NCBI GenBank assembly: GCA_902573865.1
Contig: CACGLI010000005.1
Span: forward strand, 1-43,045
Source of the DNA: an uncultured Pelagibacteraceae bacterium
Lineage (GTDB): Bacteria > Pseudomonadota > Alphaproteobacteria > Pelagibacterales > Pelagibacteraceae
Length of the DNA stretch: 43,045 nt
Direction of reading: 5' to 3'
The notes beneath the pieces were generated by a model. The model was not told the DNA's origin. It made no database searches and saw only the letters and a program-made list of their open reading frames with translations. Positions 25,763-36,254 of this stretch are shown here, piece by piece; position 1 is the first letter of the stretch, and the number at the start of each line of letters is the position of its first letter. Made by a program: the position numbers and the translations under genes.

Positions 25763-25852
25763 CCGCAAATACACATGTTTTTGCGGTGCTCTTGAAAACA
25801 AGAGTGTCGACACTAGTCAGCGAAGGTTCGCCCACTAGTGCGATAGGTGTTG
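25763..25852 (+). ncRNA. Structured leader RNA upstream of ffh (candidate ffh cis-regulatory motif)
   Basis: The 167-nt dapF-ffh gap is GC-richer than its surroundings and holds three hairpins in a row: CCGCAAA/TTTGCGG (25763-25769 with 25780-25786), CTCTTG/CAAGAG with an AAAA loop (25789-25804), and CACTAGT/ACTAGTG (25811-25817 with 25834-25840) enclosing GCGA/TCGC. A 12-nt palindrome AGTGTCGACACT (25803-25814) joins the last two, and CGACAC (25808-25813) could instead pair with GTGTTG (25847-25852). From memory, a cis-regulatory RNA preceding the SRP protein gene has been proposed in Pelagibacter; identity with it was not checked. Confidence 0.65.
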
Positions 25853-32996: not shown

Positions 32997-33383
32997 ATGA
33001 ATTTTGAAAAAAATCCGCTAACGCCACATTTACAAATCTATAAATGGCACATCTCGTCCCTTTTATCCATTGCACATAGGATAGTTGGTGTAGTAAATTT
33101 TATTGTATTAATTTTGATTTGTTTATGGATTTTTTCTTTTAACATAAACGAAAATATCTTTAATATAGTCGTAAATCTACTCACGACTAATTTTGGAAAA
33201 TTTCTTATAATTTCAATATGCTGGTCGTTTAGCTTTTTTATTCTTAATGAAATTAGACATTTGGCTTGGGATTTCGGATTTGGATTTGATTTAAAAGTAT
33301 CGAGAATAACGGGAATTTTAACTATTTTATTTTCATTTTTTTTTGCAGCTCTTTTATTTTTTTTCGGAGGTAGTCTGCTTTAA
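32997..33383 (+). CDS. sdhC: Succinate dehydrogenase cytochrome b subunit SdhC
   Basis: 128 residues, three membrane helices. N-terminal signature PLTPHLQIYKWHISSLLSIAHRIVG includes Ser24, His27 and Arg28, equivalent to the E. coli quinone-site residues Ser27, His30 and Arg31. The second signature EIRHLAWDFGFG is also present. However, Phe81 stands where E. coli SdhC His84, an axial ligand of heme b, is expected (FFILNEIRH against YHVVVGIRH). This raises doubt about whether heme is bound. Stop overlaps sdhD by one base. Confidence 0.93.
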   Translation: MNFEKNPLTPHLQIYKWHISSLLSIAHRIVGVVNFIVLILICLWIFSFNINENIFNIVVNLLTTNFGKFLIISICWSFSFFILNEIRHLAWDFGFGFDLKVSRITGILTILFSFFFAALLFFFGGSLL

Positions 33384-33706
33384 TGAACAGCTCAACTAAA
33401 AAATGGTTATTCTTAAAAGCCAGCTCTTTGGTCTTACTACCTTTAATGATATGGTTTATCTTGAACTTTTCCTCTATAGTTTTAAGCGACCCAACTGAGA
33501 TAATATTACTTTTAAAATCACAACCAGGCAAAATCTTATTTTCTGTTTTTCTTGTAGTCGCCTTATTCTTTTTTTCCCTTACTATTAGTGAGATATTTGA
33601 GGATTATATGTCTAATGAGAAATTCAAAAATGTCGCAAATAAATTTCTGTATATATTTGCTATATTATTTTCATTATTTGTTGTAATAAACATTTATAAA
33701 TTATGA
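33383..33706 (+). CDS. sdhD: Succinate dehydrogenase membrane anchor SdhD
   Basis: 107 residues, three helices. The family is recognised by the [15 protein letters not shown] opening, the P.......G spacing and the EDY motif (73-75; Asp74 and Tyr75 match E. coli Asp82 and Tyr83 of the quinone site). The residue ten before Glu73, where the heme b ligand His71 of E. coli lies, is Phe63, and the protein has no histidine at all. Position between sdhC and sdhA confirms identity. Overlaps sdhA by 4 nt. Confidence 0.9.
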
Positions 33707-35478
33707 AAGCTTATAAGATAATTGATCACGAATATGATGTTGTTGTTTTGGGCGCTGGAGGCTCGGGACTTAGAGCTGCAGTAGGTTTATCTGAGGCAGG
33801 GCTTAAAACTGCATGCATATCAAAAGTTTTTCCAACAAGAAGTCATACTTCGGCTGCACAAGGTGGTATTTCAGCAGCCCTAGGAAATATGGGAGAAGAT
33901 GATTGGAGATGGCACATGTACGATACTGTCAAGGGTTCAGACTGGTTAGGAGATCAAGATGCAATTGAGTATTTATGCAAAGAAGCACCAAGAGCTGTGA
34001 TAGAACTTGAGAGATACGGTGTTCCTTTCAGTAGAACTAAAGATGGAAAAATTTATCAAAGACCTTTCGGAGGAATGACAAAAAATTATGGTAACGGAAC
34101 TGCTCAAAGGACTTGCGCAGCTGCTGATAGAACTGGTCACGCTATATTGCATACTTTGTACGGACAAGCTTTGAAACACCAAACGGAATTTTTTATTGAA
34201 TATTTTGCTTTAGATTTGATTATGAAAAATGGAGAGTGCAAAGGTGTAATTGCTTGGAATTTAAATGACGGAACTATTCATAGATTTAGATCTCATATAA
34301 CTATCATAGCAACTGGAGGATATGGAAAAATTTACTATTCTGCAACTTCAGCTCATACTTGCACTGGCGATGGGAATGGAATGGTTTTAAGAGCAGGTCT
34401 ACCCCTACAAGATATGGAATTTGTACAATTTCACCCAACTGGTATTTACGGTGTTGGCTGTTTAATTTCAGAAGGAGTTAGAGGTGAAGGTGGTTATCTT
34501 CTAAATGCCAAAGGCGAGAGATTCATGGAGAGATATGCGCCTAAAGCAAAAGATTTAGCTTCCAGAGATGTTGTAAGTAGATCAATAGCAGTTGAGATTA
34601 ATGAAGGTAGAGGTGTTGGTAAAGAAAAAGATCATGTAAATTTACATTTAGACCATATTGATCCAAAAGTAATAGAGGAAAGATTGCCTGGCATTGCCGA
34701 GTCAGCTAAAACATTTTCAGGAGTCGATGTAACAAAAGAACCAATACCAGTTGTACCAACTGTTCACTACAATATGGGAGGTATTCCAACTAATTATAAA
34801 GCAGAAGTTTTGACATTAAACGGTTCAGAAAAAACTGTTAAAGGTTTAATGGCTATTGGTGAGGCAGCTTGTGTTTCAGTTCATGGAGCAAATAGATTAG
34901 GATCAAACTCTTTAATAGATCTAGTTGTGTTTGGAAGGGCTGCAGCTAAAAGAGCATCAGAATTAATTAAACCAGGCTCTCCCCATGAAGAAGTATCTAA
35001 CAGCGAAACAGATAAATGCTTGGAAAGATTTGATAAAATTAGAAATTCTAACGGTGGAACCAAAACTTCAGAGCTTAGATTATCTATGCAAAAAACTATG
35101 CAAAGCAAATGTGCTGTGTTTAGAACTGAAAAAACTTTAAAAGAAGGCGTTGACTCAATAAGGAAACCGTTTGAAGGTATAAATGATTTATCAGTGAAAG
35201 ATAAGTCTTTGTTATTTAATACTGACTTAGTAGAAAGCTTAGAGTTTGATAACTTGATTAGACAGGCAATCACAACTATGGATAGCGCATATCATAGAAA
35301 AGAGAGTAGAGGTGCCCATGCGAGAGAAGATTTTACAAAAAGAGACGACAAAAATTATATGAAACACACACTTGCATGGCATGATGGTGAAAAAGTGGAA
35401 ATTAAGTATAGAGATGTTCATTCTAGAACATTAACAAATGATGTACAATATTTTCCACCAAAAGAACGAGTGTATTAA
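33703..35478 (+). CDS. sdhA: Succinate dehydrogenase flavoprotein subunit SdhA
   Basis: 591 residues, FAD-carrying catalytic subunit of complex II (succinate to fumarate). FAD-binding [17 protein letters not shown] near the N-terminus; the covalent-flavin region [17 protein letters not shown] with its histidine; QFHPTGIYG; and RGEGGYLLN are all conserved. Length is normal. Its TAA overlaps the ATG of sdhB. Confidence 0.98.
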
Positions 35479-36254
35479 TGGCTCAGTTTAGCCTCCCTTC
35501 AAATTCAAAAATAATTAAGGGAATTTACTATAAAGACCAAACGGGTTCTAAAAATATAAAAAAAGTTAATGTTTATAGATGGAGTCCTGAAGATCAAAAG
35601 AATCCTAGAGTAGATACTTTTGAGGTAGACATGAATAATTGTGGCCCAAAAGTTTTAGATATCTTATTTAAAATCAAAAATGAAATTGATCCTTCTTTAA
35701 CATTTAGAAGATCTTGTGCACACGGTGTTTGTGGATCATGCGCGATGAATGTGGATGGAGTAAACACTTTATCATGTATAAAGTCCCACTCAGATATTAA
35801 AGGTGACCTTAATATTTATCCTTTACCGCATCTAAGAGTCATTAAAGATCTTATAGGTGACTTAAGTAATTTATATAAACAATACGAGTCAATTCAACCT
35901 TGGTTGAAAACATCAAAAACAGACAAAGAAAAACAAGAAATTAAGCAATCACAAAAAGATAGATCTAAGTTGGACGGTTATTACGAATGTATTCTATGTG
36001 CATGTTGTTCAACTTCTTGCCCTAGCTACTGGTGGAATGGAGATAAATATCTAGGCCCAGCAGTCCTTCTTCAAGCTTACAGATGGATTAATGACAGCAG
36101 AGATGAAGAAAAAAAAGAAAGACTTCAGAAAGTTGCAGATGAGTTAAAATTATACAGATGCCATACAATAATGAATTGCACAAATTCATGTCCCAAGGGT
36201 CTAAATCCAGCTAAAGCTATATCATCCATTAAAAAAATGCTTGCAACAAGTTAA
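35478..36254 (+). CDS. sdhB: Succinate dehydrogenase iron-sulfur subunit SdhB
   Basis: 258 residues carrying all three clusters: [2Fe-2S] in [16 protein letters not shown] plus a later Cys, [4Fe-4S] in [13 protein letters not shown], and [3Fe-4S] in [17 protein letters not shown]. The quinone-site Pro and Trp in SCPSYWW and the His of CHTIMNC are conserved, so electron transfer to ubiquinone should work even if heme b is missing. mmsA follows after 24 nt. Confidence 0.98.

What the first reader, a model, noticed from the sequence alone, without database searches (positions are those of the whole stretch)
33237..33706. Succinate dehydrogenase apparently without heme b ligands
Aligned by eye to E. 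coli complex II, SdhC Phe81 replaces heme ligand His84 and SdhD Phe63 replaces heme ligand His71. SdhD contains no histidine at all. The quinone-site residues are kept (SdhC Ser24/His27/Arg28, SdhD Asp74/Tyr75, SdhB Pro/Trp/His), and SdhA and SdhB look fully intact. This predicts a working complex II with a quinone site but no heme b. It would be a natural version of heme-free E. coli mutants, which keep activity, and could save iron in an iron-poor ocean.
Basis: partly seen in the sequence, partly recalled or inferred. Interest (0 to 1): 0.72.

Follow-up and report, generated by a model that had tools for sequence, protein, structure and literature searches.

The report
SAR11 complex II without heme ligands
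The succinate-oxidising respiratory enzyme of this ocean bacterium has lost both amino acids that normally hold its heme, and most of the SAR11 relatives that were read have lost one or both, while the parts needed to work are kept, so it probably runs without that heme, as the yeast enzyme does.

Summary
SdhC Phe81 and SdhD Phe63 occupy the positions of E. coli heme ligands SdhC His84 and SdhD His71; profile alignment confirms the register. The operon is intact, quinone-site and Fe-S residues are kept, and sdhCD evolve under purifying selection. It is not a private oddity. Of 143 Pelagibacterales genomes read, all 103 of three genera have Glu where canonical SdhC has Gly88, one turn after the ligand; 101 of 102 readable SdhD lack the ligand His; SdhC has Gln in 61, His in 40, Phe in 2. 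In a second family 21 of 26 show the mirror loss (SdhC His gone, SdhD His kept). The other genera read keep both His. Elsewhere in Alphaproteobacteria 116 of 121 SdhCD read are canonical. Remodelling of the pocket favours heme absence over a ligand swap. Heme-free type C complex II is known in yeast, Tetrahymena and Perkinsus (PMC13066397): a new variant of a known kind. My searches found no report for SAR11. The iron-saving purpose is untested.

The parts
32997..33383 (+). sdhC, cytochrome b556 subunit, 128 aa
   Evidence: TIGR02970 97.9 bits, PF01127 82.6 bits
33237..33239 (+). SdhC Phe81 codon, at the position of E. coli heme ligand His84
   Evidence: Gln in 61, His in 40, Phe in 2 of 103 genomes of the loss branch
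33249..33251 (+). SdhC Glu85 codon, at the position of E. coli Gly88 (ligand + 4)
   Evidence: Glu in 103 of 103 genomes of the loss branch; Gly in the 14 f1 genomes read outside it and in the 5 of f2 g3
33258..33260 (+). SdhC His88 codon (E. coli His91, hydrogen-bonds the distal heme propionate there)
   Evidence: 103 of 103; role in E. coli from PMC3290573
33383..33706 (+). sdhD, membrane anchor subunit, 107 aa, no histidine
   Evidence: TIGR02968 41.1 bits against a cutoff of 41.8; hhalign 99.2% to canonical SdhD
33416..33418 (+). SdhD Lys12 codon (E. coli Arg20, propionate partner); proposed partner of SdhC Glu85
   Evidence: Lys in 97, Arg in 4, gap in 1 of 102 SdhD of the loss branch; the salt bridge is inference
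33446..33448 (+). SdhD Met22 codon (E. coli Ile30), conserved Met of the loss branch and a possible replacement ligand
   Evidence: Met in 96 of 102; mostly Leu in 20 intact sequences
33569..33571 (+). SdhD Phe63 codon, at the position of E. coli heme ligand His71
   Evidence: Phe 95, Tyr 5, Asn 1, His 1 of 102
33581..33583 (+). SdhD Thr67 codon, at the position of E. coli Gly75 (ligand + 4)
   Evidence: Thr, Ser or Asn in 102 of 102 SdhD of the loss branch
33703..35478 (+). sdhA flavoprotein, intact
   Evidence: TIGR01816 962 bits; FAD-His and active-site positions kept, T254 is Ser
35478..36254 (+). sdhB iron-sulfur subunit, intact
   Evidence: NF004616 351.8 bits; cluster cysteines and Pro/Trp/His of the quinone site kept

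Best explanation
This is a working succinate:ubiquinone oxidoreductase descended from an ordinary heme-containing type C complex II, and it no longer binds heme b. Electrons go from succinate to FAD, through three Fe-S clusters, and straight to ubiquinone at the kept quinone site; in E. coli the heme lies off that path. The heme pocket between SdhC and SdhD is refilled by protein: bulky side chains replace the ligands (SdhD Phe63; SdhC Gln in many relatives, Phe81 here), and SdhC Glu85, one turn from the lost ligand, probably takes the place of a heme propionate by pairing with SdhD Lys12, as a mirror image of the Arg97(Sdh3)-Glu112(Sdh4) bond of heme-free yeast complex II. The SdhD ligand was probably lost once at the base of a large SAR11 branch; the SdhC ligand then drifted. 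Shown: the residues, their distribution, the selection on the genes. Inferred: absence of heme, the Glu85-Lys12 pair, the reason for the loss.
For: Both ligand positions are Phe. Loss branch, 103 genomes: Glu at SdhC +4 in 103 of 103, non-His at the SdhD ligand in 101 of 102, quinone-site residues kept in all or nearly all. The 14 f1 genomes read outside the branch keep both His, 13 of them with both Gly. The 74 loss rows can be held as one clade at a likelihood 3.08 higher than the free SdhA tree, p-AU 0.545. After the SdhD loss, SdhC has Gln in three separate parts of the branch and Phe in one, as expected if the His had lost its job. Purifying selection. In E. coli the heme is off the electron path, a heme-free variant supports growth on succinate, and paralogue Frd lacks heme (PMC3290573). 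Yeast complex II, with Sdh3 His kept, Sdh4 Tyr at the ligand and Glu at +4, shows no heme by cryo-EM, in line with its spectra (PMC13066397).
Against: No spectrum and no structure. 40 of 103 genomes of the branch keep the SdhC His, and one (G112) has His at the SdhD site. E. coli axial-ligand mutants are reported to retain heme (title of a 2001 paper seen in a reference list; not read). SdhD Met22 is newly conserved (96 of 102), SdhC Cys42 is conserved (94 of 103) and SdhC His88 is invariant, so a displaced heme cannot be excluded by sequence. Heme is needed for stability of the isolated E. coli enzyme (PMC3290573). Ferrochelatase is present in 10 of 10 genomes tested, so heme is presumably made.
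Confidence: 0.77

Rival explanations
1. Ligand swap: the complex still holds a heme b, bound by other residues such as SdhC His88 or SdhD Met22, or as a five-coordinate heme in species that keep the SdhC His.
For: SdhC His88 is invariant and SdhD Met22 is conserved in the loss branch; E. coli axial-ligand mutants are reported to retain heme (title only).
Against: E. coli His91 (= His88) binds a propionate, not the iron (PMC3290573), and it is just as conserved in the 20 intact sequences. Gly to Glu at SdhC +4 in 103 of 103 and loss of Gly at SdhD +4 in 102 of 102 should fill the pocket (the filling itself is inference). In the window neither original ligand is left. Yeast with one replaced ligand has no heme (PMC13066397).
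Confidence: 0.13
2. The anchor is decaying: SdhCD are degenerating and complex II is poorly active or not used.
For: Small, incomplete genome; ligand residues lost; one f2 genome (G058) shows only a short SdhC match with a stop codon inside.
Against: Intact sdhCDAB in register; dN/dS between 0.07 and 0.32 in 15 of 16 gene comparisons, 0.6 in one very close pair; quinone-site residues invariant or nearly so; SdhA and SdhB intact.
Confidence: 0.03
3. Adaptive iron or heme saving is the reason for the loss (a claim about cause, on top of the best explanation).
For: The genera that keep both ligands include closed genomes whose lengths match, as I recall them, IMCC9063 (g8) and HIMB114 (g5); the largest losing genus, g6, includes lengths that I recall for marine HTCC1062 and HIMB5. 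IMCC9063 and HIMB114 belong to the brackish-water subclade IIIa, LD12 is its freshwater sister, and estuaries are noted as having available ferrous iron (PMC10030771). SAR11 shows iron-stress responses in the sea (PMC11069385).
Against: Few habitat contrasts, names recalled from genome length, only 1 of about 10 iron atoms of the complex saved (2+4+3 in the clusters plus the heme; textbook count), drift after relaxed constraint would look the same, and f2 g3 keeps the heme site with habitat unknown.
Confidence: 0.3

Closest known systems
Saccharomyces cerevisiae complex II (heme-free type C; cryo-EM, PMC13066397)
   Same: Type C family; ligand His of the SdhD-type subunit replaced by an aromatic residue; a new Glu four residues after a ligand position; quinone site kept.
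   Different: Yeast keeps the Sdh3 His and has Tyr108 and Glu112 in Sdh4; here the Glu is in the SdhC-type subunit and the window has lost both His. Bacterial and separate in origin. Heme absence is measured in yeast, inferred here.
E. coli SdhCDAB (type C with heme b; 1NEK)
   Same: Same subunits, quinone-site residues, Fe-S ligands and gene order C-D-A-B.
   Different: The window lacks both axial His and both +4 Gly.
E. coli heme-free Sdh variant (Tran et al. 2007; not held, known here through PMC3290573)
   Same: Heme-free type C enzyme that still supports growth on succinate; ligands replaced in both subunits, as I recall.
   Different: Engineered, and the isolated enzyme needs heme for stability; here evolved, with further changes around the pocket.
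E. coli fumarate reductase FrdCD (type D, no heme)
   Same: Two anchor subunits, no heme, able to replace Sdh when overexpressed (PMC3290573).
   Different: Different anchor families; the window's anchors match Sdh_cyt/TIGR02970/TIGR02968 and no Frd anchor family.
Tetrahymena and Perkinsus complex II (heme-free, as cited in PMC13066397)
   Same: Natural complex II without the heme.
   Different: Divergent mitochondrial complexes; their papers were not read.

Membership tests
Type C succinate:quinone oxidoreductase | SdhA flavoprotein with covalent-FAD His and active-site residues | tested here: met
   TIGR01816 962 bits; H48, H244, R288, H355, R398; T254 of E. coli is Ser256
Type C succinate:quinone oxidoreductase | SdhB with ligands for three Fe-S clusters | tested here: met
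   All tested cluster positions are Cys; D63 of E. coli is Cys88
Type C succinate:quinone oxidoreductase | Two anchor subunits of the Sdh_cyt family | tested here: met
   SdhC above cutoff; SdhD 41.1 against 41.8 bits (TIGR02968) and 23.5 against 25.8 (PF01127), but hhalign 99.2%
Type C succinate:quinone oxidoreductase | Quinone-site residues (SdhC Ser27/Arg31, SdhD Asp82/Tyr83, SdhB Pro160/Trp164/His207) | tested here: met
Type C succinate:quinone oxidoreductase | One axial heme ligand from each anchor subunit | tested here: not met
   Phe81 and Phe63 at the two positions. A type C descendant by sequence that lacks the heme-ligand feature; PMC13066397 keeps heme-free yeast in type C
Heme-free type C complex II (yeast kind) | Axial His replaced in at least one anchor subunit, quinone site kept | tested here: met
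Heme-free type C complex II (yeast kind) | New polar residue at ligand+4 that stands in for a propionate | tested here: inconclusive
   Glu85 in SdhC present in 103 of 103 genomes of the branch; its bond was not modelled
Heme-free type C complex II (yeast kind) | No heme by spectroscopy or structure | not testable with these tools
Type D (FrdCD) fumarate reductase anchors | Membership of Frd anchor families | tested here: not met
   No Frd anchor family among Pfam or NCBIfam hits up to E 1 for SdhC and SdhD

The most novel reading that the evidence does not exclude
Most marine SAR11, a group among the most abundant cells in the ocean, respire succinate through a heme-free complex II. The heme site was dismantled twice in the order, from opposite sides (SdhD first in one family, SdhC in the other), while the genera that I take to be brackish and freshwater lineages keep it. 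This gives a natural series of intermediates (both His, one His, no His, pocket refilled) for finding out what complex II heme is for.
Probability: 0.5. Interest if true: 0.76.

Novelty: new variant of a known kind. Interest (0 to 1): 0.62.

Why it matters
The role of heme b in complex II is an open question (PMC3290573 calls it highly ambiguous). A natural bacterial series, in one order, of complexes with two, one and no heme ligands makes the question testable with native enzymes and not only mutants. If heme is absent, SAR11 needs one heme less per complex II, which bears on the iron budget of a group for whose cellular iron demand no estimate was available (PMC11069385). It would also be parallel evolution with yeast.

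Tried and rejected
Considered and set aside: sequencing error (two base changes at each site, and the same state in G026); a second, heme-binding copy in the genome (one search finds only this pair, genome about 70% complete); misalignment of the weakly similar SdhD; pseudogene decay.

A first pass with text patterns missed many SdhD frames and was replaced by HMM-based picking. The free SdhA tree put genus g10 (G310, both His kept) inside the loss branch on a long branch; holding it outside gave a higher likelihood. For f2, holding the SdhC-loss genera together gave a likelihood 8.81 higher, p-AU 0.674 (after unfinished runs). Neither test shows a clade; it only fails to reject one. PMC2888824 and PMC2084287 were not held; what I say of them comes from PMC13066397 and PMC3290573 or is recalled. 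What I saw of papers: PMC13066397 passages and one section; PMC3290573 passages and Introduction; PMC10030771, PMC11069385 and PMC10735183 passages; all others only as search listings. That no report for SAR11 was found rests on the listings, in an open-licence library only, and the papers listed there were mostly not opened.

Rows dropped from the 143-genome count: L002 (same as the window), L069 (same genome as L141), L070 (G058, broken match), L145 (G329, 64-aa fragment), and the loci of the search for related loci (L033-L050), which partly repeat the same genomes. The 143 were drawn from the genomes with a match (51 of 61; 348 of 397). The sample is not random: nearest relatives, best-scoring hits, hand-picked genera and some weak hits. 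The class survey read 121 of the 124 genomes with a match (of 144); G000 and G061 (Pelagibacterales) and G533 (fragment) were left out, and second matches in the same genome were not read.

Full report
What is there. The window carries an intact sdhCDAB operon (sdhC 32997-33383, sdhD 33383-33706, sdhA 33703-35478, sdhB 35478-36254), assigned by Pfam and NCBIfam. The genome is an 846-kb, 36-contig assembly of about 70% completeness in which one Sdh_cyt pair was found. The nearest named relatives are records titled uncultured Pelagibacteraceae (16 of 18 loci), so this is SAR11.

Register. SdhC aligns with solved SdhC chains through the strongly conserved IRHLxWD block. SdhD is weaker: it falls just under its family cutoff and finds no complex II chain in the PDB by sequence. 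I therefore compared profiles: 98 SAR11 SdhD against 115 canonical SdhD align over 103 columns without a gap at 99.2% probability and put F63 on H71; SdhC gives 100% and F81 on H84. The E. coli sequences were checked against the deposited record.

How wide it is. I read the residues in 143 Pelagibacterales genomes (codes f and g are the tool's unnamed families and genera; the 143 cover the 11 genera that had a match). Family f1: genera g1 (44, the window's), g6 (53) and g9 (6) form the loss branch. At the SdhC ligand they have Gln 61, His 40, Phe 2; at SdhC +4 Glu in 103 of 103; at the SdhD ligand Phe 95, Tyr 5, Asn 1, His 1 of 102. Genera g5 (4), g7 (4), g8 (5) and g10 (1) keep both His, with Gly at both +4 sites except Ser at SdhD in g10. 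Family f2: g3 (5) keeps His and Gly in SdhC, and in SdhD in the 4 that could be read; g2 (17), g4 (3) and g13 (1) have lost the SdhC His (Tyr, Tyr, Asn) and the SdhC Gly (Cys, Ser, Asp) but keep SdhD His and Gly. So the order shows losses that begin in opposite subunits. In 121 SdhCD pairs from other Alphaproteobacteria, 116 are His/Gly in both subunits; 5 are not (L235, L261, L262, L265, L266).

Tree. On a tree of SdhA fragments (122 rows), which leaves the trait's own genes out, the SdhD ligand needs 5 changes, the SdhC ligand 9 and SdhC +4 5 over the 113 rows given a state (111 Pelagibacterales and two others). The loss branch plus g10 is one group with 99% support (SH-aLRT, quick tree); with g10 held outside, the likelihood rises by 3.08 (p-AU 0.545). 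The f2 loss genera can also be one clade (likelihood 8.81 higher, p-AU 0.674). One loss per family is thus compatible with the data, not proved. Within the loss branch Gln occurs in g6, in part of g9 and in part of g1, and Phe81 in the window and G026, which are sisters (95% support).

Why heme absence is the best reading. Besides the ligands, both conserved small residues one turn away are gone, and SdhC has an invariant Glu in place of Gly; a mere ligand swap does not predict this. In E. [quoted passage not shown] In heme-free yeast complex II the propionate contacts are replaced by direct bonds, one of them Arg97(Sdh3)-Glu112(Sdh4), where Glu112 lies four residues after the replaced ligand Tyr108 (PMC13066397). 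SdhC Glu85 here lies four residues after the replaced ligand in the other subunit, and its symmetric partner would be SdhD Lys12 (E. coli R20; Lys in 97 of 102). That Arg97 of yeast equals E. coli SdhC R31 is recalled. I propose Glu85-Lys12 as the mirror image of the yeast bond; this is inference. Lys at this site is not diagnostic: f2 g3, with an intact site, has Lys too.

Function. Electron transfer from the last Fe-S cluster to ubiquinone does not pass the heme in E. coli, a heme-free variant keeps much activity and supports growth on succinate (with lower rates), and Frd lacks heme (PMC3290573). The quinone site is kept. Of 16 pairwise dN/dS values (8 pairs, two genes), 15 lie between 0.07 and 0.32 (for example L005/L014: sdhC 0.058/0.670, sdhD 0.071/0.415); one, sdhD of the closest pair, is 0.6; in several distant pairs, the window's among them, dS is near saturation. 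So the genes are selected for function.

Against. No heme measurement was found for these complexes. Forty genomes of the branch keep the SdhC His, and f2 keeps the SdhD His; E. coli axial-ligand mutants are reported to keep heme (title only), so in those lineages the case is weaker than in the window, though yeast with one replaced ligand has none. Conserved SdhD Met22 (96 of 102) and SdhC Cys42 (94 of 103) could be ligands in principle. G112 has His at the SdhD site with Gln at the SdhC site.

Why it was lost. Ferrochelatase is present in 10 of 10 genomes tested, six losing or mirror-losing and four keeping, so heme synthesis was not lost. Closed genomes in the keeping genera g8 and g5 have lengths (1,284,727 and 1,237,371 bp) that I recall for IMCC9063 and HIMB114; closed genomes in g6 have lengths (1,308,759 and 1,343,202 bp) that I recall for HTCC1062 and HIMB5 (lengths). 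IMCC9063 and HIMB114 belong to the brackish-water subclade IIIa (PMC10030771). Loss in open-ocean lineages and retention in coastal ones would fit iron saving, but the contrasts are few, the names are recalled, and drift would look the same.

Novelty. Heme-free complex II is known in yeast, Tetrahymena and Perkinsus (PMC13066397) and heme-free Frd in E. coli. I found no report for SAR11 in the listings. New variant of a known kind.

Noticed in passing
L235, L261, L262, L265, L266: Five Alphaproteobacteria outside Pelagibacterales, with genomes of 1.2-2.0 Mb, also have altered heme-ligand positions; L261, L262, L265 have Tyr in SdhC and, four residues after the kept SdhD His, a Glu like the one of heme-free yeast Sdh4. 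The SdhD of L266 is a weak match. Names unknown.
   Followed up: partly
33446-33448: SdhD Met22 is conserved in the loss branch (96 of 102) where 13 of 20 intact sequences have Leu; role unknown.
   Followed up: partly
L131 (G112): One genome of genus g6 has His at the SdhD ligand position with Gln at the SdhC position and Thr at +4: a regained or chance His.
   Followed up: no
L109 (G310, genus g10): SdhC and SdhD keep both His but SdhA falls inside the loss branch in the free tree on a long branch; early branching or transfer not resolved beyond the AU test.
   Followed up: partly
L070 (G058): Only a short SdhC match with a stop codon inside in this f2 genome; broken gene or assembly fault.
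   Followed up: no
25796-25848: Rfam ffh sRNA (RF01793, 42.4 bits), next to the start of a 456-aa reading frame; the only Rfam match at gathering threshold in the window.
   Followed up: no
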